64,000 bases of DNA from Phlyctochytrium arcticum. Taxonomy: Eukaryota > Chytridiomycota > Chytridiomycetes > Chytridiales > Chytridiaceae. Below the pieces are notes generated by a model. It ran no database searches, had not been told where the DNA came from, and saw only the letters and a program-made list of their open reading frames with translations. Positions 53,680 to 64,000 of the stretch are shown one piece after another (the first letter of the stretch is position 1; each line of letters opens with the position of its first letter). The stretch is from NCBI GenBank assembly GCA_025602905.1, contig JAHLKI010000024.1:362681-426680 (forward strand). Direction: 5' to 3'. The position numbers were made by a program, and so were the translations under genes.

Positions 53680-55287
53680 GACCACATTCACTTTCCTCCC
53701 TCGAATCTGATGTCATGCCTGCGCCACTTTATGTAATCTTGGAGTCCGATAGAGTGGCATGACTGCGCGTCAATTGGAGAGACCTCTTCAGCGATGTGTG
53801 AAAACAGAGAGCGATGGAGAGCCGTACTCCATGATTTCCGTTTTTTCCAATTTCAAATGTTTTTGATTTCATCGAGACAACTCAAGAAAAAAGGGTTATT
53901 CTAATTTTGCCAAAATGGAATGTGTGAAAAACACCCGTTTTCACCCTGTTCATGTCGATAAACCATCAAAATGGTGAAAAACATTCGAAAACCGTCAATT
54001 GGAATGACTTTAGCGACTTAAAACGGCACTTTTGCAACTTTACGCTTCACTGGTGAATGCTACCCGCAATTTTCCCACACACGCGCCTCACTTGTTACAT
54101 TTTCATCAACCAAATTTACAAACAATCTTCATTTGCTACAGACTAATCGAGTACGACAACGTTACAAGTGATGCACTACATGAATCTTTGGTCAAAAGTA
54201 CACCCGCAGTTTCTTCACTTTTCGACCTCACTTGCTACATACTTTCCACTTTCTGCTTCTTTCAACAATTTGTCTCCATAGCCTCCGGAGGGTAACCAGA
54301 GGGAACACTGATATTCAAGAGAGTAGCGAGAGTAGACCGCTGTGGTAAAGTCGTTCAAACTGTTCTACCGCGGATTCATCGAATACGAAATCTTCGATTG
54401 GCTTGGAAAAGGTCAATGATGCATACACAATACTCGGTCTTCTCTGGCCCACTCCTCTCAAGATTCCAACGTAGGAACGACTATTTTCAGTTTCTCCGAT
54501 CTAGTCGCCGAATCTACGGTCCTCCAATAAACTCCGTAACTGACTGTTTGTAGTTGTATATTGAAAGAATATGTACAATGGTCCTAACCCGGGACTGTTG
54601 CGACATGAACAAGTTGAGTGGGATTAGATCCGCAGGTTTTTCACTTTTTGTTGTGGTTTGTTACATATGTACACTCTTCTCAACTCCTTCTACACTACTC
54701 TCCATACCCTCCAAAGGCTACAGAGGCTCTCGTAGGTTATCACACTTCTCCATCTACATCATTGCACCGCCACTTTATATAATCGTCGAGTCCGCTGGGT
54801 CCGATGGAGTCTATCGGTGTCTTCCAACCAATGTGAAGCATGAATTGCCATCAAGTCCCATCAAGTGACACACTTTTTACACCCTTTCCAACTTTTACAG
54901 CAACTCACTACATGGTATGGAGGGTTTTATACAGTCAAGAATGAAGAACTCAGTTCATTTCCGAGTGTTATGTAGAGACGCTCTCCATGGCGGAAAAGGT
55001 TTTCAGAAATTTTCAATATTGAAATCATGCCAAGTGAAAAACGGTCATTCTAAATGTAACAAAATGGAAAGTGTGAAATACACTCGTTTTTGGTGTGTTT
55101 ACGCCTGATTTATATCGATAAAACGTTGAAATGGCTGAAAACGTGGGAAAACTGTATGTAGTTGTATATTGAAAGAATATGTACAATGGTCTGTACTCGA
55201 CTAAACTCCGCTAAATTCAAAAAGAAATGAGGCGCAAGCCATGTTTCCAACTCCGACTAGAAATGCATCCGAAACTAAACCCAACTC
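53680..55287. repeat. Non-coding region with two diverged direct repeats of about 250 bp
   Basis: Blocks at about 53800-54010 and 54950-55150 share AAAATGGAA(T/A)GTGTGAAA and CATC(A/G)AAATGG-like stretches in the same order. The 35-bp run TGTAGTTGTATATTGAAAGA plus 15 more bases occurs exactly at 54549-54583 and 55156-55190. Two further blocks (54050-54290 and 54640-54750) resemble each other around ACTTTTTG, ACATA and CTCCATA/CCCTCC. No gene is visible. Confidence 0.5.
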
Positions 55288-57181
55288 CTAACTCGACAAT
55301 TTCAAAATTAATGGGTCTTCATTGCCATATACAAACTGGCACGACGAGAAATTTCCGGAAGAAAAGAATACCGAAAGTCGATGTTTGTATCGCTCAATCT
55401 TTTTCGAGAATGAACCCTGCCGAAAGTCAACAACAACATATTCGTTCACACGAAGCGCATGGTACGGTCCTGAAGGAGAAAATCGATCCATATGGCCGCC
55501 AATTTTATCCCCTTTCCTCAAAAGTTCGACTCCCCAGCGCAAGTCCCCATTCAAATAAAAATCGATTGCACCCGCAATTCGCTCACTTGGCTCCTCGCCA
55601 TGCGCAGGAAATACGGTCGACAACTCGGGACATATCGCGCACGATGGTGGTGTAGATGCGGCAAGGGAGTTCATCAGAAGATGTTGAAACGTGGCCTCCT
55701 TTGGAAAATCAACGCCACCAGGTGAAGATGAACGAAGGATTGCGCTTGACATGTCAGAAATAGCCTGCTTCATCAACACTTTCAAATTAGCCGGGGCGCT
55801 GGGAGACCTTTTTGGGAAAAGCCACCGGCAATAGTATCGTTTTGCTAATGGAGAAGAGAAAGCAAACTTATTACTTCCAACTTCGACAAGCAGTCCAACC
55901 TTCATCAAGAGGGACAGGTGATCTGTAGTCTTATCGTCTTCAAATGTCGGTTTCTCTAAATCGTCCGGGCAGATTAAACACTGCTGCAGAAACGTTCTCA
56001 AGCCTGAATCCACTGGAGCCGACTGTTTACTGCCGAAACATCGACTCACCTCAGGAAGAAAATCTTGTGAAAAATAGTACTGCACTATATTCGTTTCCGG
56101 CGGCGGCAGCGCATTCTTCACGAATCGCTGTTTTATAGCATCAATAGAAAGGCGGACTGCAGCAATCAGTCCGTTGCTTTCGTTGATAATCATGTTCTCA
56201 ATCAGTTGAGTTCCGTAGCCATTGGGAAGACCAAAAGGTGGCGGTGCTCTTAGCATGTCAAGAGCCTCCTGCGAGGAAATTCGGAAATCTTCCCGCTTCA
56301 GCCGTCTAAGTGATGCCAACTCAACAGGACTTTCTTGCTGGCCCTCCAGCAGATGTGTTGCAGATATCACCAATCTCAGACGCGGAAATTTAACGATAAC
56401 ATCCTTAACTAGAGATGCCCACGCTTTAATGTTGTTGTACGTTGCTTGAGCATCATCCAGCCATATAAGGTAGTGGCTGGTAGCGTCCAATAGATACTCA
56501 TGGCGTCCATCGAAAAGTTTGCCTCCCCCCAGAGCAGAAACAAACGTTTCGAAGTTGAAACCCGATGCTAGACACGAAACGCGAACGCAGTTCTCCCTTT
56601 CTCGCGAAAGCAATTGAAAAAGGGAAGTCTTTCCCGAGCCGGCCGGCGATGCTACGACCACAACCTGATTGTCGTTGAGTAGTTGATTAAGTTCAGTCAA
56701 CAATGGAATACGATGAAGGTAAAAGCCGTTCAAGTTGACGCCATCGAGTGTGACGGTCCGGTCGATGGTTGCTGTATTGCGTCGTACTGAAGGACAGAAG
56801 TGTATGCGTTAGAATGCTATTGTCTGTAATTGCAATCCCTCCCTTACCACTTGTAGTCGGCTGACTCCGCTCCGGCACCACAATCAGCAGCGGGTTCTCA
56901 TCCGAGTGGTCTTTTGCTTTTTCCAGTACCGATTCCAGCGTTTTCCCCGCTTTCAACCAGTGCTTGGGTTCGGGTTCGTCTTTGTCTTTCTCTAGTGCTT
57001 CTGCGCTGGCGTAGACGAGGAGGTCGGCAGCGTCATAGTCCCGCAGGCGGTTCCCAAACTCCTTTTTCACTTGCTTTCGCAGATTGTCCACAGTCGAGGT
57101 TTCTGAGACAGAAATGGAGGTGGCGGTTCCAGGTACTCTCTTGCCGTTGGCATTCGTTAGTTGAAACCAAATTGTCGCCAT
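55288..57181 (-). CDS. Crinkler-like effector: Ubl header, P-loop ATPase, REase-like domain
   Basis: Exons 56848-57181 and 55288-56786 give 610 residues across a 61-nt intron. Residues 1-111 form the Crinkler-type ubiquitin-like header, which has a strand-rich start, ADLLVYASAEALE, WLKAGKTLESVLE and the terminal LLIVVPERSQP. Next comes a STAND-like P-loop domain with Walker A ASPAGSGKTSLFQLL (about 155-170) and Walker B YLIWLDDAQ. The C terminus has WGVELLRKGDK, MDRFSPSGPY and VVVDFRQG, the layout of a PD-(D/E)xK-type nuclease domain described in Crinkler/CR effectors. A host or self target is unknown. There is no classical signal peptide. An alternative start lies 6 codons upstream (57199). 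Confidence 0.8.
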
Positions 57182-57439
57182 GGTTGTTTCCTGAATCATG
57201 CTTGCGGTATTTTGCCGTATTTCGGCTACTGGAATGGTCGGTCAGTCAACAACTGCAGGTGGCTTATGTCAGTGGCACAGATATCAAAAAGTAGCGCGTG
57301 GGCGGCGTGAAAACAATGTTAGCGGCAGCACTAGAACCAGCACAGTGCATTCATATAGATTCTCAAGGAAAACGCCCTCCAGGGACTTTTTCCAGCATAC
57401 ACTTTGCCGGCTTGTTCCAACACAAACGACTTCATTACC

Positions 57440-57653
57440 CGCTCAGCCCGTCAATCCTCCACCAACTCAGGAAGGATATTACGAGGTAGACTACATTATT
57501 GACAAGCGAACTCGCATGGTAGATGGAGAGGAAGGGGTCGAATTCCTTGTAAAGTGGGTCGGGTATAACAACCCACAAGACAATTCGTGGGTTCCGCTTG
57601 GAGATTTTGGAGACAATAGGGAAGCAATTTACGAGTTTGAACCGAATAAATGA
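57440..57653 (+). pseudogene. Chromodomain fragment
   Basis: The frame reads YYEVDYIIDKRTRMVDGEEG, VEFLVKWVGYNNPQDNSWVP, a complete chromodomain of the kind found at the C terminus of Ty3/gypsy and Polinton integrases. It ends with a stop at 57653. The integrase core found 150 bp downstream is on the same strand but in the reverse of the normal order, so the locus has been rearranged. The upstream part of the frame overlaps the Crinkler gene start and is probably not coding. Confidence 0.65.
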
Positions 57654-57721
57654 TCATTTACATAGGAAAGATCACAATACATTTGATTTATACAATCCAC
57701 ACAACATTCTACATTTCATCC

Positions 57722-58168
57722 ATGTCGCTAAAAGGATATGCTGCTCCACTTAGAGGCGAAAGTGAAGAAGAAGTGACCGAAGCATTATAGAAGTGCCTTG
57801 GCAAGGGTCGACGAGAAGGAAGGAAAATCTCAATAATGCAAACGGATCAAGGCGCGCATTTTCAACAAATCTTCAAAAGGGAACTCGGTGATAGTGGAAT
57901 CAAACATTTTTATTCACAAGTAGCCAGACCGCAAAGTAATGCGTACGTTGAGAGAAGAGGAGGCGATATTAAACGTCAGTTAGACCAAATCATGGGGTCA
58001 AATAATGATAAAAAATGGGTTAATAATCTTCAGACAGTTATTGACAATATCAATTCGGTAAAGTCAACAGCAACAGGGTTTTCTCCAAACGAAATGGAGC
58101 GGGGTGATGAAAATATTTCGGCAGAAGCAAAAGCACGATTTATGGGGGGTGGGGGGTTATCTCGATAA
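57722..58168 (+). pseudogene. Retroviral-type (Polinton-like) integrase core fragment
   Basis: The frame gives SLKGYAAPLRGESEEEVTEAL, a TAG stop near 57788, then MQTDQGAHFQQIF (second catalytic Asp), HFYSQVARPQSNAYVERRGG (catalytic Glu) and the tail NSVKSTATGFSPNEM. The zinc-binding region and the first Asp are missing. The sequence type is nearer to Polinton/Maverick integrases than to the chromovirus copies elsewhere in this window. It borders the HTH-polymerase-helicase element and may be a relic of its integration module. Confidence 0.65.
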
Positions 58169-58254
58169 TCCTAATGTTCTTGATAATCCTAGATTATCGA
58201 GATTATCAAGATCAACGATTTGACCCCCTTTTTTCTTCATAGCCCTTGAAGGTA

Positions 58255-58452
58255 TCACTTTTCTTTATTCTTTGGTCTTTCTGTGATTACAGCCTTCATC
58301 CTAGTAGTTTCGCGATTGTTGAGCATTTTATGAATTGTCGGATGTGACACACCCAATTTCCTAGCCAATTGGCGAATGCTCCGTGCTTCGACCGTTCGTT
58401 CTTCTCCCAGAAAAGTTACAACTGCTGTATAAATGCTTTTTGACCCAGTCAT
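58255..58452 (-). CDS. Small helix-turn-helix protein
   Basis: This is a 65-residue protein, MTGSKSIYTAVVTFLG..., with a clear HTH (RSIRQLARKLGVSHPTIHKML) and a basic tail. It reads outward from the left divergent promoter block. The window's last bases (63993-64000) begin an identical start (ATGACTG) reading outward from the right promoter block, so the gene is probably present twice, once on each side. The likely role is a repressor or origin-binding protein for the element, by analogy with small HTH proteins of plasmids. That role is an inference. Confidence 0.6.
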   Translation of the reverse strand: MTGSKSIYTAVVTFLGEERTVEARSIRQLARKLGVSHPTIHKMLNNRETTRMKAVITERPKNKEK

Positions 58453-58688
58453 TGCAAGAATATTAAAATAATGCTATACTATTTTACTATCTTTTAAAAT
58501 ATGAATCAATATTTCATTTGTTGCGTTTGAAAGAGTCATCGTCTACACCGGAATTTCTCGAATTTCGATGTATGTGATGGATTATGACCAATACCGTTTT
58601 GGATGTCGATGTTGCGCTTAATTGTTATTTAAAGAAATAAAACTTTTGTTAAAGAAGGAAAGTTACTAAACATTCAATAACAACAATT
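58453..58688. promoter_or_regulatory. Left divergent promoter / inverted repeat block
   Basis: This 236-bp block lies between the starts of the HTH gene (minus) and the polymerase-like gene (plus). It is about 93% identical to the reverse complement of 63759-63992. It is very AT-rich, with CTTTAAATAACAATTAA, GGTATTGGTCATAATCCATC and AAAGATAGTAAAATAGTATA conserved. An imperfect hairpin is formed around AATTTCTCGAATTTCGATG. Confidence 0.85.
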
Positions 58689-60059
58689 ATGTCTGACTTT
58701 TGTCCAAAATTATCAAGCGATACCGCACTCGAAAAATTCGAGTATATCAATGACATTCATATCAAATATTGTCTTCAGAGTCCATTCGTTTTACACAAAC
58801 TAAAGACCCGTTTGCGTGCTCTTAAGCATCGCAAAGTTGGAAAAAATCTTTATCGCACCGAGTATGCTTATTCCGAAAAAGGGAGCCTAGAGCAAATTGG
58901 CCGATTATGGGCTAGAGGACTGTCTCTTCAGAATCTCGAGGCAAGAGATAATCATTTCAGACAGTATCTAGCAGCAGGACGATATCATGATATAGACCAA
59001 GTAAATTCTATATTTACTTTAATTGCTCATCTCTTTAAGCAACATTCTATCACTTGTGATGCTCTAACTCACTATGTCGAAAATCGCTCTACTATCTTAA
59101 CAGAAAAAAATATTGACAAACAAGAGGTTGTTTCCATGATGCTATTCGCTGGGCGTAAAATCAGTGACCCTTTCTTTTCTGAAATACACTCCGTTATTTA
59201 CACCACACTTTGCCCCATTCTAAAAATCGAGTATCCCGACATTTGGGAAAAAGTCAGAACATCCCGGGATGCTACTATTAAGGGCAATCGCGAAGGTAGT
59301 TTTATCGCACAAGTTACCCAAACCCTCGAAAACAGAGTGACACTTTTAACGGATCAATTCTTTACCGATAGGGGGTGGTCGGTTGATGCTCTTATCTTTG
59401 ATGGTGGAATGATTAGGAAAAGAGATGGTCACGATATGACTCAAGAGTTACTTGATGAATGTTCACAATTCGTCTTTGACGAATGTGGTATTCATATTAA
59501 ACTGGCGGAAAAACCACTCGTTGTATCTGATGCGTTTTTGGAGAAATTCCGTTTGAAGTATGAACCTTTGGAGGAAGAAGATGATGAGGAGGATGATGAT
59601 GATGAGCCACCCAAGAAAAAGCAAAAAGATGACCTTGATTTCGAAGCGCTGCGGGACTTACCATCTGGCAAATGGAAATATTTCGATTTCAAGCGACTTT
59701 ATGCTCCAACACATCTCAACGCCGCAAAATGGTTTATTGAAGAACAAAGTGCCGATAGTATCATGAAACATACGAGCGGTTTTCTCTATATCCTCGGGAA
59801 AGACAATATCTGGCGCGAATATGATACTATCGGAGCAAGTGACTTAAATATTCAAGTTGCCGAAACTCTGGTGTCCTCCTTTAAATCTCTTATCCAGGAA
59901 GCAGAGGACGATATGCAAAATGTCAACGACCTTAGAGATGTGTTTAAACAATTTCAACGAATAATCGAAATGAATGATTTCTCCGGAAACGTGGCCAAAA
60001 ATGTCGATAGACTCTCTGTTAAAAACGACAATGTGATAGTGCATAACCAAATCCCATAG
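58689..60059 (+). CDS. TV-Pol / family-A-like DNA polymerase palm protein, C-terminally cut
   Basis: This 456-residue protein starts directly after the left promoter block. ARGLSLQNLEARDNHFRQYL followed by RYHDIDQVNSIFTLIAHLF (about 100-115) fits polymerase motif A of the TV-Pol/family-A-like group found in virophage- and transposon-encoded replicases. VVSMMLFAGRKIS fits the fingers helix, and ALIFDGGMIRK (about 235) fits motif C. An acidic stretch and a PPKKKQK nuclear signal follow (295-315). The region from WFIEEQSADSIMKH on resembles the N-terminal part of D5-type helicases, but the frame ends inside a 60-bp palindrome, with no Walker motifs. I infer that a polymerase-helicase fusion has been cut there. 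Confidence 0.6.
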   Translation: MSDFCPKLSSDTALEKFEYINDIHIKYCLQSPFVLHKLKTRLRALKHRKVGKNLYRTEYAYSEKGSLEQIGRLWARGLSLQNLEARDNHFRQYLAAGRYHDIDQVNSIFTLIAHLFKQHSITCDALTHYVENRSTILTEKNIDKQEVVSMMLFAGRKISDPFFSEIHSVIYTTLCPILKIEYPDIWEKVRTSRDATIKGNREGSFIAQVTQTLENRVTLLTDQFFTDRGWSVDALIFDGGMIRKRDGHDMTQELLDECSQFVFDECGIHIKLAEKPLVVSDAFLEKFRLKYEPLEEEDDEEDDDDEPPKKKQKDDLDFEALRDLPSGKWKYFDFKRLYAPTHLNAAKWFIEEQSADSIMKHTSGFLYILGKDNIWREYDTIGASDLNIQVAETLVSSFKSLIQEAEDDMQNVNDLRDVFKQFQRIIEMNDFSGNVAKNVDRLSVKNDNVIVHNQIP

Positions 60060-60092
60060 TATATACTATGGGATTTGGTTATGCACTATCAC
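60033..60092. repeat. Perfect 60-bp palindrome (no spacer)
   Basis: The two 30-bp arms GTGATAGTGCATAACCAAAT... and its exact complement meet at 60062/60063 without a loop. The left arm is the last coding sequence of the polymerase-like gene and contains its stop codon, TAG at 60057-60059. It could extrude as a cruciform, act as a bidirectional terminator, or mark a fold-back or hairpin end. Confidence 0.97.
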
Positions 60093-60099
60093 AGGGAGA

Positions 60100-60240
60100 T
60101 TCCAACTATGGGCCAACTATGCCCCAACTATGCCCCAACTATGCCCCAACTATGCCCCAACTATGCGGCAACTATGAAGCCCGCTATGTGACCTTATTAT
60201 AAGGCCACTTCTCCACTATGTGACCCTATGATAAGGTCGC
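60100..60240. repeat. Tandem 11-bp iterons and a duplicated hairpin-like motif
   Basis: CCAACTATGCC-type units, period 11 bp, occur six to seven times in a row from about 60110 to 60176. They are followed by two copies of CTATGTGACC-n-TATAAGG (60184-60208 and 60219-60240). Direct iterons next to a palindrome resemble replication origins of plasmids and viruses. Confidence 0.8.
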
Positions 60241-60720
60241 CTCCATCAAACATCGAGTCATATTACACATCATGAATCATCCCTCTTCATATTTCATCGA
60301 GTGGTGCCGCTTGTCACGGGAAAGGGACTTCCACATTACACCGTGTAATAGGCTGCTTACGTAAGCATCGTGTCTCATCTCCTCACATTCTATCCAAAAA
60401 AGCAACGACCCCCCGGGTTGATCGTTGCTCTCCTTTCAGAGATACCAAATTTATCTTTTAGTGACCTTGGTGAAGACACTGTATCGAGCCATCGAGATCT
60501 GAATCGTTGTGAATCGCTTATGGAGCGGGCCCTTTACGGGACTTTCAATCCTTTATAACATTCTCCGTAATATCGATATAACGCAATATCGATAATCTAG
60601 GATCATCTGGATCATCAGGAGTATCGATATCGCCCCCTGATATTGCTATGTCCCTCTCTGGGTCTCAATATTTGAATGTCCCGATTCAGCAACTTCTCAG
60701 TAATTGAAATACTGCTTAAA
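60241..60720. other. Intergenic region with small palindromes
   Basis: It contains GCTTACGTAAGC at 60355-60366, a stem GCAACGA...TCGTTGC at about 60402-60428, and several ATATCGATA palindromes (60572-60640) with GATAATCTAGGATCATC repeats like those at 58160-58215. A 62-codon frame at 60370-60558 has no recognisable motif. Confidence 0.5.
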
Positions 60721-61095
60721 GAATTTGGTACATTTGCAAAACATTTGCAAAAATGGGATAACAAATGTACCACTCCATGATTCAGATTATTCTATTTCTT
60801 TCTTTTTGTTATTAGAGAGAATAGAGAGAAGAGAATAGAAAAGGGTAATGGGTTCATGGAGTGGTACATTTGGTACATTTGTTTGGTAAAATTAAGTCAG
60901 GAAAAAAAATAGAAAATGAAAAAAGAATAATATCAAAAAAATACCACTTGCAAATGTACCAAAATGTACCACCTCCATGCCCGAGTCAAACAGTCTTTCC
61001 TGATTTATGGGTCAGTGGAGGACTTTATCGAGTTGGTACATTTGCATCTTTTCTCTCTGTAAATGTACCAGCAAATGTACCAGCAAATGTACCAA
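60720..61095. repeat. Cluster of GGTACATTTG / CAAATGTACC motifs in both orientations
   Basis: At least nine copies of the decamer or a near form occur at about 60727, 60762, 60862, 60873, 60950, 60963, 61034, 61063, 61074 and 61086. The 19-bp TCATGGAGTGGTACATTTG and its reverse complement form an inverted pair around 60780-60855. The cluster lies between the convergent ends of the polymerase-like and helicase genes, where a promoter is not expected. Confidence 0.85.
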
Positions 61096-61145
61096 TTTCT
61101 TTAACACGGCTTTTTCTTTTCTTTTCAGATCTTTTTCGGCCAACT

Positions 61146-63758
61146 TTACACATTTTCTACCTCCTCTACAATCTTCTCTATTTTTAATGTGATGGGCGTT
61201 CCCCCTCGCCTGTTTGTAGTAGCATTTTTTATCCACACCTTCTGTCGAATCAGTTTTCCAAATCCTCTTTTTGACAATTGTTCTGACATTCTCCCCCCTT
61301 GCTTATCTTCATAGCAGAACTTGTGATAATGTCCAAATAATTCATCCATGGTCATCTCATATTGCTCACCTATTTCAAAGTATTCTGGCTCAGTTTCGAC
61401 ATAAGTTCCATCAACCCATTCATTCCCAGAAAAGCGTCCTTCGATGTGTTGTTTTCGAGATGGTGTTTTGATAATGTTTCCATCAAGTAATTCATCAACA
61501 AATAGATCGATAGGTGATCTGGTGAATATTGCCATTTCTCTTTTCTCATCTGTCATCGGAACTTCACGGGGATCGAAATCTGACAGGTCCATATCAAGAA
61601 GATATGTATAGAAATGATTGGCCACATCTTGGCGCATTTCCTCTCCATCCAATCTCGCAAAGTATTCTACAAAATGCTGTCTCCGTGGTTTCTTGGCGGT
61701 TCTTTTTACAGCAAATCGTCTATCCCCATCTCCTCCGTCCTCGATACGAATCGCATCTTTGTTATTTGAGAGAAACACGAAATGCATATATGAGTCGATC
61801 ATAATTAGATCAACTCCTTTCTTTTCAAGTGGAATCTGGGTTTCGGTAATCTTTGATTTCAAAATGTTATTTTGCTTATGCTCTCCAGCAAAAGTAACTT
61901 CATTAGCAACCGTGTACAGACATTTTGCTTGATGTGCATTAAATCTTCCGGTAAGTTGATCCATGGAACTTGTGGAGAAAAAGTGAACTTTTCCATATAT
62001 ATATTTGCCGATATAGTCAAAAAAGGTATTTTTTCCGGTACCTTGAGGACCAGTAAAAACTGGTGAAGTTCCCATTTTGATCCAGGGAAACTGGAGAGCG
62101 TGTGCTTGCCATCGAATGAGCCAGTTATAGAATACTTCATCCCCGTTGCATATGATATTCTTGCAATGGTCAAGTAAAAATTGGATTTTACCCATGTCAA
62201 CAATTGAGACCCGCTTTGCGTTGAACCCTTGGAAGAGATTGATATATTGACCTTCGACATCTCCAACCTGTCGTGGGTCTAATATTACATTTTTAAAAGT
62301 TCGAATATTTTCATGAAAACACCATGATGATATCTTGAATGAACACTCTTCAATTTCTCCGTCCTCCTTCTCATCCTTATAGATGAATGACAAGTGTTCC
62401 ACGTGAGCCACAAATGCTGATTTTCCCCGTACCAACCATGGTGAGTCTATCGTATCTCGGATACAGTACCATATCGCGTCCTCGTGAGTAATTTTTGCCA
62501 GAAAATTATTGAGGTAATGAATGAGAGCATGTTTGCCAGACGTTTCTACAATCCGACGTGCTTTATCTAAAGATAAAGTCTCACATGGTTTCACCAAATC
62601 GTCATTCGTTGGAAAAGAGTCTGCAATAATCTTAACATTGTGGTTTTTAATGAATGATTTGTCGCAAACGTCACAATGATACTTGAGTTTTCTGCGAGAT
62701 ACCGATACATACATTTTCGGATTGGATTCAGTATGTTCGCATTTAGTATGCAAACAATAATAGGGCGCTTTGATGAATGTGACAAAGGCATATTCCATTT
62801 CCGATATAGGCCCCAAATCGCTTTTTCTAATCCCGAAAGTTTGCACGATTAAGTTGGTAATGTCTTCTTCAAGCGGATTAAGTGATGAAACAGGTTTTTC
62901 GATATCCTTCTTCTTCTTCTTTTTTGGTTGGATCTGTTGTTTCTCTACATCAGAATCAGAATCTTGAACAAGGACGAATTCCGAGATACATTCTTCGCTC
63001 GGTGTATCATCAATGACTGCGTTGGTTCTCTTTAACGTATCCTTTGGTGTCTTTTGTTTCTTATTCATGTCAAATGCGGTATTTTTTGCCCATCTGACCT
63101 TTTCATCCGTATCTTGAACATTTTGGATTAAAAAGTTCTCAAGACGTTCATTATCGTCCTCTCGATATAATATGCGTTTGTCAAATTTGGTTTTGGTTTT
63201 TCCTACACACGCCATCGATCGGTTGTTATCATTGTAAACACCAGTGTCAAAGAGTGAATTATTGTCAAATGAGTAATTACGCACACATTCTGGGAATTCC
63301 GACAAATCCGGCATATAACCTTTTAGGTGTTTGAGAAGATCCTTTTGAGATGTGCGAACCCCGTTCGCATAAAGTCGATAAGAAATTTTCCATTTTCCAT
63401 GTTCAACCCATTCTCCAGATTGTTTATCCTTTTTCTTATTAGTTGCAAATCCCCTTTCGCGGTAGGCACCAACTATTTTTATATTGTCATTTAAAATGAA
63501 ATCGCTGAATACCTTTTTAAGGGCTTTTCGGATTGCAAGTTCTTCATCGACTGAAGGAAGGTCAGTCTTGGATGTGAAATTCATATCAAAGTCAACAAAC
63601 GGAATTATATATTTGGTAAAGATGGTGTCGTTTTTCGCAAAAAAGTCAACGAGATGGGGATATTTCTGTTGATTTGCGAGATAATCGTCAACATTCCAGT
63701 CAAAGGTTTGAACAGGGAACTTGGCAGAGGATCCTAAATAAGAAGTTTTGAAAAACAT
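61146..63758 (-). CDS. Primase - zinc finger - superfamily 3 helicase (D5-like replicase)
   Basis: This is an 870-residue replication protein. The N-terminal domain is an archaeo-eukaryotic primase: IPFVDFDMNF (metal-binding acidic pair, about residue 55), KISYRLYANG (about 124) and FDTGVYNDNNRSMACVGKTK. A linker with a KPKKKKKK-type basic signal follows. A zinc cluster is CLHTKCEH...YHCDVCDKSF (335-365). The C-terminal superfamily 3 helicase has Walker A GPQGTGKNTFFDY (about 568), LYTVANEVTF as Walker B and FVFLSNNKDAIRI as motif C. The layout matches D5-like primase-helicases of large DNA viruses, virophage relatives and related transposons. It starts directly after the right promoter block and has no intron, unlike host genes here. 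Confidence 0.88.
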   Translation of the reverse strand: MFFKTSYLGSSAKFPVQTFDWNVDDYLANQQKYPHLVDFFAKNDTIFTKYIIPFVDFDMNFTSKTDLPSVDEELAIRKALKKVFSDFILNDNIKIVGAYRERGFATNKKKDKQSGEWVEHGKWKISYRLYANGVRTSQKDLLKHLKGYMPDLSEFPECVRNYSFDNNSLFDTGVYNDNNRSMACVGKTKTKFDKRILYREDDNERLENFLIQNVQDTDEKVRWAKNTAFDMNKKQKTPKDTLKRTNAVIDDTPSEECISEFVLVQDSDSDVEKQQIQPKKKKKKDIEKPVSSLNPLEEDITNLIVQTFGIRKSDLGPISEMEYAFVTFIKAPYYCLHTKCEHTESNPKMYVSVSRRKLKYHCDVCDKSFIKNHNVKIIADSFPTNDDLVKPCETLSLDKARRIVETSGKHALIHYLNNFLAKITHEDAIWYCIRDTIDSPWLVRGKSAFVAHVEHLSFIYKDEKEDGEIEECSFKISSWCFHENIRTFKNVILDPRQVGDVEGQYINLFQGFNAKRVSIVDMGKIQFLLDHCKNIICNGDEVFYNWLIRWQAHALQFPWIKMGTSPVFTGPQGTGKNTFFDYIGKYIYGKVHFFSTSSMDQLTGRFNAHQAKCLYTVANEVTFAGEHKQNNILKSKITETQIPLEKKGVDLIMIDSYMHFVFLSNNKDAIRIEDGGDGDRRFAVKRTAKKPRRQHFVEYFARLDGEEMRQDVANHFYTYLLDMDLSDFDPREVPMTDEKREMAIFTRSPIDLFVDELLDGNIIKTPSRKQHIEGRFSGNEWVDGTYVETEPEYFEIGEQYEMTMDELFGHYHKFCYEDKQGGRMSEQLSKRGFGKLIRQKVWIKNATTNRRGGTPITLKIEKIVEEVENV

Positions 63759-63992
63759 TGTTGTTATTGAATGTTTAGAATCTTTCCTTCTTTAAACAAG
63801 AGTTTTTTTTCTTTAAATAACAATTAAACGCAACATCGACATTCAAAACGGTATTGGTCATAATCCATCATTTACATCGAAATTCGAGAAATTCCGATGT
63901 AGACGATGACTCTTTCAAACGCAACAAATGAAATATTGATTCACATTTAAAAAGATAGTAAAATAGTATAACATTATTTTAATATTCTTGCA
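63759..63992. promoter_or_regulatory. Right divergent promoter / inverted repeat block
   Basis: This 234-bp block separates the start of the primase-helicase gene (minus) from the start of a second HTH gene (plus). It is the inverted counterpart of 58453-58688 with scattered substitutions and one or two small indels. Confidence 0.85.
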
Positions 63993-64000
63993 ATGACTGC
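63993..64000 (+). CDS. Start of a second HTH gene, cut by the window end
   Basis: Only ATGACTGC is visible. It is placed exactly as the start of the 58452 HTH gene relative to its promoter block, and its first seven bases are the same (ATGACTG). The rest lies outside the window. Confidence 0.5.

What the first reader, a model, noticed from the sequence alone, without database searches (positions are those of the whole stretch)
57722..64000. A replicon with two inverted copies of one divergent promoter driving a split polymerase and a primase-helicase
The sequence shows HTH gene, promoter block, polymerase-like gene, repeat-rich centre, primase-helicase gene, promoter block and HTH gene start, arranged symmetrically. 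The two 235-bp blocks are about 93% identical and inverted, and each serves one replication gene inward and one HTH gene outward. Intronless genes and AT-rich composition set it apart from host DNA. D5-like primase-helicases and TV-Pol polymerases are known from virophage relatives and related transposons. A symmetric dual-promoter arrangement with the two replication proteins on separate arms is one I do not recognise. It could be a linear plasmid, an integrated virus of the polinton-like kind, or a new element class.
Basis: partly seen in the sequence, partly recalled or inferred. Interest (0 to 1): 0.92.

Follow-up and report, generated by a model that had tools for sequence, protein, structure and literature searches.

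The report
Virus-like element inserted inside its cousin
What looked like one symmetrical replicating element in a chytrid fungus genome is most likely one integrated virus-like element sitting inside the replication gene of a related one, and the ends of these elements are near-perfect DNA palindromes that could fold into hairpins.

The parts
54061..58212 (.). Left part of the outer element (remnant). Its far end was not found in the window.
   Evidence: 54061-57737 and 57730-58137 match the inside of elements on C30 and C58 at 68-80% in pieces; 56834-58212 matches the C5 element at 91%; only one tip palindrome in the window
55288..57199 (-). Crinkler-like cargo gene: N-terminal piece 56693-57199, P-loop-like piece 55288-56733
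   Evidence: Pfam Crinkler E 7.9e-5, 23.8 bits, just below the 24.6 cut-off; the C58 counterpart scores 26.2, above it; 55288-56733 only weak NTPase matches
57480..57653 (+). Chromodomain remnant
   Evidence: Pfam Chromo E 6.3e-10
57836..58168 (+). rve integrase fragment (C-terminal part of the core)
   Evidence: rve_3 E 7.8e-4, below cut-off; about 80% identical to the integrase of C30 over 96 residues
58138..58212 (.). Deletion scar: about 1.07 kb of the C5 element, holding a 289-aa ORF, is missing here
   Evidence: C5 4418 and 5490 abut in the window; 79-bp direct repeats, 83.5% identical, flank the lost stretch in C5
58255..58452 (-). HTH gene of the outer element, 65 aa
   Evidence: Many weak HTH matches, best E 7.8e-5, below cut-off
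58446..58687 (.). Divergent HTH/replicase promoter block of the outer element
   Evidence: 94.65% identical, inverted, to 63757-63999; promoter role inferred from position
58689..60031 (+). Front half of a TVpol-D5 (family-A polymerase plus D5_N) replicase gene, interrupted in codon 448; the ORF runs on to 60059 in the palindrome
60027..60031 (+). GACAA: left half of the expected 5-bp target duplication (inferred)
   Evidence: Last bases shared with the uninterrupted C5 gene before the break; right half not found
60032..60093 (.). 62-bp perfect palindrome: left tip of the inner element
   Evidence: identical to the right tip of the C5 element
60091..60243 (.). Subterminal repeats of the inner element (11-bp units; two 31-bp copies)
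   Evidence: families D1 and D8
61146..63758 (-). D5-type primase-helicase of the inner element, 870 aa, open; N-terminal half AEP-like by recalled motif only
   Evidence: DUF5906 E 1.2e-21; phrog_1156 DNA primase 5e-30; PDB primase 6k9c 4e-10; 98% copies on C45 and C43
63757..63999 (.). Divergent HTH/replicase promoter block of the inner element
63993..64000 (+). First 8 bases of the inner element's HTH gene; contig end
   Evidence: Sequence; alignment with C45 and C5; contig length 426680

Best explanation
Two related endogenous Polinton-like (MELD) virus elements of Phlyctochytrium arcticum, one nested in the other. The outer element keeps an rve/chromodomain remnant, a Crinkler-like cargo gene, an HTH gene and a TVpol-D5 replicase gene; its far end was not found. 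The inner element sits in codon 448 of that replicase gene; only its left tip, its D5 primase-helicase and its promoter block are assembled. Shown: the interrupted gene, the uninterrupted sequence in relatives, the palindromic tip, 5-bp target duplications in three relatives, and capsid, integrase and D5 genes between tips of relatives. Inferred: an rve integrase joins linear DNA to the chromosome with a 5-bp stagger. Inferred: the palindromes are the opened form of hairpin ends that let a linear genome without protein-primed PolB copy its ends. Inferred: related elements kept one HTH/promoter cassette while the replicase downstream was exchanged near its start codon.
For: Window and C5 gene agree up to AAAAACGACAA, then the window has TGTGATAG... 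(the palindrome) and C5 has TTGTATCG.... Nine other copies are 92-97% identical over residues 1-450; eight lie in frames of 830-878 aa and continue through the back half. Model matches family-A polymerases; relatives have D5_N and the profile matches ASFV C962R and poxvirus D5. 110 places fit the tip pattern, control 0. 5-bp duplications: C13 AACCT, C58 GAGCC, C24 AACCG. rve plus chromodomain in frames of 451-454 aa at six places (domains in the C30 copy). Capsid family: 62 rows in the genome, relative deposited as hexon of a Powellomyces MELD virus, 54%. Six of 18 tip-bounded intervals hold capsid, integrase and D5 hits.
Against: The right-hand junction was not found: pattern search 0 of 1 genome, and C45:57125, which starts at about the same residue, is not it. 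The contig ends inside the inner element. C5, the closest relative with both tips, has no target duplication and two unlike tips. The window itself holds no capsid gene that I found, and its integrase is a fragment. The C24 right tip has a mismatched pair.
Confidence: 0.82

Rival explanations
1. One symmetric replicon (linear plasmid or new element class) whose two inverted promoters drive a separate polymerase and a separate primase-helicase.
For: Inverted blocks, divergent genes, two replication proteins.
Against: The polymerase ORF is a cut-off gene: eight relatives run on to 830-878 aa. The palindrome at the break is an element tip found across the genome. Of 18 tip-bounded intervals none was seen with the window's pairing of a TVpol-D5 and an inner-type D5 (hit lists typed in part).
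Confidence: 0.03
2. Not a clean insertion but a one-sided rearrangement: recombination between elements or self-insertion joined a tip to the middle of the replicase gene, and the rest of the gene is lost.
For: Right junction not found; the window palindrome equals the right tip of the closest relative, C5; the outer element already lost 1.07 kb; tips of near-identical inner elements differ (window 62 bp, C45 and C43 longer).
Against: The break is exactly at the tip base, as in the relatives that have 5-bp target duplications; the contig end alone can hide the other side.
Confidence: 0.12
3. Assembly chimera at the palindrome.
For: The contig ends in a repeat 3.9 kb to the right, and the near copies on C45 and C43 also lie at contig ends.
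Against: The left side is matched by C5 up to the break, and the same kind of tip occurs well inside contigs. Reads were not available.
Confidence: 0.05

Closest known systems
Polinton-like viruses / MELD viruses of chytrids (Spizellomyces punctatus PLV group, PMC7805220, passages; Powellomyces chytrid fungus MELD virus 5)
   Same: Capsid family, rve integrase, 5-bp target duplications (5-7 bp reported there), inverted ends, chytrid host
   Different: Near-perfect palindromic tips; nested, capsid-less derivatives; replicase exchanged behind a shared HTH/promoter cassette
TVpol-S3H and AEP-S3H replicases of PLVs and virophages (PMC3671162, PMC4642659, PMC12220804, passages)
   Same: Family-A polymerase fold fused to D5_N and an SF3-type helicase; both replicase kinds in one host genome
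   Different: In the window the TVpol gene is cut by a relative's tip; AEP label of the second protein rests on a recalled motif
Polintons (Mavericks) proper
   Same: rve integrase with chromodomain (chromodomain in Polinton integrases is recalled), short target duplications, inverted ends
   Different: No protein-primed PolB row inside the 18 tip-bounded intervals
Poxvirus and ASFV-type linear genomes with hairpin ends (recalled)
   Same: Helicase half of the TVpol-D5 family matches ASFV C962R and poxvirus D5; ends able to fold on themselves
   Different: Small integrated elements, family-A polymerase domain, rve integrase; hairpins themselves not observed

Membership tests
Polinton-like virus (PLV/MELD) | Major capsid gene | tested here: met
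   Met for relatives, not in the window: 62 rows in the genome, relative deposited as hexon, 54%, Pfam Capsid_N in that relative E 0.003, below cut-off; capsid plus integrase plus D5 in 6 of 18 tip-bounded intervals, five gene sets, some with stops inside
Polinton-like virus (PLV/MELD) | Packaging ATPase, minor capsid protein | not tested
   No search was made
Polinton-like virus (PLV/MELD) | TVpol or AEP fused to SF3 helicase, or PolB | tested here: met
   TVpol-D5 by model and family hits; second replicase D5-type, its AEP half inconclusive
Polinton-like virus (PLV/MELD) | rve integrase or tyrosine recombinase | tested here: met
   rve fragment in the window; frames of 451-454 aa at six other places
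Polinton-like virus (PLV/MELD) | Inverted ends with short target duplications | tested here: met
   Three of four relatives with both ends in hand; C5 lacks a duplication; in the window only one end is present
Polinton (Maverick) proper | Protein-primed PolB in the element | tested here: not met
   14 PF03175 rows in the genome, 12 over the cut-off, none in the 18 intervals and none on the window's contig C24
Hairpin-ended linear replicon | Self-complementary ends | tested here: met
   15 pattern-matched tips, 240 of 242 pattern-free pairs complementary
Hairpin-ended linear replicon | Covalently closed ends in free DNA | not testable with these tools
   Needs DNA from the organism

The most novel reading that the evidence does not exclude
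These PLVs without protein-primed PolB replicate as linear DNA with hairpin telomeres: each end folds on itself to prime synthesis, a D5-type replicase with a family-A polymerase or another primase domain drives it, and the opened palindromes are what the rve integrase joins to the chromosome. Hairpin-templated copying would explain why each palindrome stays perfect while the two ends of one element differ (C5), and why a whole element can become a giant inverted duplication (24.5 kb on C24).
Probability: 0.4. Interest if true: 0.72.

Novelty: new variant of a known kind. Interest (0 to 1): 0.5.

Why it matters
How Polinton-like viruses that lack protein-primed PolB copy the ends of a linear genome is, as far as I recall, open. 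A genome with about 110 tip-pattern places, near-perfect palindromes in those examined, beside D5-type replicases, offers a concrete and testable answer. The shared HTH/promoter cassette upstream of unrelated replicases is a clear snapshot of replicase exchange. Crinkler-like genes inside two tip-bounded elements (C5, C58) suggest a vehicle for the spread of that gene family in chytrids.

Tried and rejected
Single symmetric replicon: rejected, see rivals. TVpol by sequence alone: the 456-aa ORF gave no convincing Pfam, PHROGs or PDB match (best PHROGs E 0.0035, terminase small subunit); the intact C5 copy and the model settled it. C45:57125 as the missing back half: it starts at about the same residue, but its upstream DNA has no palindrome and no gene front. 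C45 and C43 as the two arms of one element: rejected, because the 5 bp beside their tips differ (CAATG against CAGAT). Tyrosine recombinase as general integrase of the family: six rows in the genome, on C30, C58, C86 and C1; Pfam does not name it, so the label is recalled. Viral contigs: the inner D5 protein alone found nothing, the capsid alignment no relative, the D5 alignment 31 helicase loci that I did not examine. Structure of the inner primase-helicase: pLDDT 31, not used; its N-terminal 260 residues have no significant PDB match. Literature on palindromic or hairpin tips: searches listed 5, 1 and 3 papers, none by title a description of PLV tips and none opened (two are giant-virus genomes that mention hairpins); 'palindrom' has 0 occurrences in PMC7805220, PMC3671162, PMC4642659 and PMC12220804. 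This covers only the held open-licence library; the adintovirus/MELD paper PMC8502044 is not held. No paper was read whole: passages only of those four and of PMC9952930.

Full report
What was checked. The inverted blocks are real: 58446-58687 against 63757-63999, 243 aligned bases, 94.65% identity, E 3e-109. The genes are there, with lower GC than the 58 kb to the left. The window is from Phlyctochytrium arcticum: P0027, a protein with that name, is identical to the window's 456-aa ORF over its aligned part and comes from a contig of 426680 bases, the length of C24. The 870-aa protein has a 98% identical P. arcticum relative. The window ends where C24 ends, so the right half of the picture is cut off.

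Where it is cut. Window and C5 agree up to AAAAACGACAA; then C5 continues TTGTATCG and the window reads TGTGATAG, the start of a perfect 62-bp palindrome at 60032-60093, the only one found in the window. It is identical to the right tip of the C5 element. To its right come subterminal repeats and an open 870-aa primase-helicase with 98% copies on C45 and C43. The simplest reading is a second element inserted in the replicase gene of the first. The expected right-hand junction was not found; the contig end can explain that but does not prove it.

Why it looks symmetric. The HTH/promoter cassette of the outer element and that of C45, a sister of the inner element, are 93.5% identical over 493 bp, up to the start of the replicase. 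The two replicases of the window have no meaningful protein match (best E 0.64) and no extended DNA match in their first 300 bases (best 16 bases, opposite strand). So related elements share this cassette upstream of different replicases, which I read as replicase exchange. Nesting in opposite orientation then gives the mirror.

What kind of element. One degenerate tip pattern fits 110 places, reversed-pattern control 0. Fifteen pattern-matched tips in held loci, ten distinct sequences, have 240 of 242 pattern-free pairs complementary. C45 and C43 tips form a longer palindrome of the same style; the C24 right tip has one mismatched pair. Of four elements with both ends in hand, three show 5-bp duplications (C13 AACCT, C58 GAGCC, C24 AACCG); C5 shows none and has two unlike tips. 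rve-type integrase occurs in frames of 451-454 aa at six places, with rve and chromodomain matches in the C30 copy. A capsid family gives 62 rows, many of them fragments or with stops; its best functionally named relative is 'hexon' of Powellomyces chytrid fungus MELD virus 5, 54% identical. Of 18 tip-bounded intervals that I paired by proximity, six hold capsid, integrase and D5 hits (five gene sets, two intervals on C6 being nested), one more capsid and D5 (C44), and four none of these. PolB genes exist elsewhere, but none of their 14 rows falls in these intervals. So the elements belong with endogenous Polinton-like viruses, several of them without a capsid hit. An integrated PLV in the chytrid Spizellomyces punctatus, and inverted repeats with 5-7-bp duplications in such elements, were reported before (PMC7805220, passages).

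How it likely works. Shown: interruption, tips, duplications, gene content of relatives. Inferred from family knowledge: an rve integrase joins linear DNA and leaves 5-bp duplications. Inferred and untested: the tips are opened hairpins. That each C5 palindrome is perfect although the two tips differ is what copying one arm from the other would give. I found no description of such tips in PLVs in the held literature, a limited search.

Limits. The primase half of the inner protein is called AEP-like from a recalled motif only; its model and PDB search gave nothing. The capsid was not modelled. Promoter and regulator roles of the shared cassette are inferred from position.

Noticed in passing
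G000:C24:303568-328046 (L032-L034): A 24.5-kb element with palindromic tips and 5-bp duplication AACCG that is itself a giant inverted duplication: arms 99.9-100% identical over at least 8.0 kb, ORFs mirrored up to the centre. It carries a DnaJ-like ORF (recalled motif). A fold-back assembly artefact is not excluded inside it.
   Followed up: partly
G000:C13:606105-628141: Probably a second nested case: a tip-bounded 19.1-kb element (607553-626669, duplication AACCT) lies between an outer pair of tips of another sequence type.
   Followed up: partly
window 55288-57199; L040:6510-8224; C58 61217-63220: Crinkler-like genes (effector family) inside tip-bounded elements on C5 and C58, and in the window's outer element.
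   Followed up: partly
G000:C45:132990-135647 (L022:3190-5847): 886-aa ORF with no Pfam match, related at 27-43% to ORFs on C39, C6 and C34; its last residues run into an element tip.
   Followed up: no
G000:C58:50338-50571 and 68499-69380 (L024, L026): The 17.9-kb C58 element sits in a tandem-repeat array of about 27-bp units.
   Followed up: no
window 54543-54583 and 55151-55191: A 41-bp direct repeat, 98% identical, 608 bp apart, left of the Crinkler-like gene.
   Followed up: no
G000: C25, C54, C7, C3: PolB genes (PF03175) lie 7-9 kb from divergent capsid genes, which suggests that PolB-type relatives also live in this genome.
   Followed up: no
window 58689-60200, P0027: The deposited gene model DFS34DRAFT_687727 (491 aa) continues past the break into inner-element sequence, so its C-terminal part is probably not a natural protein end.
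   Followed up: no
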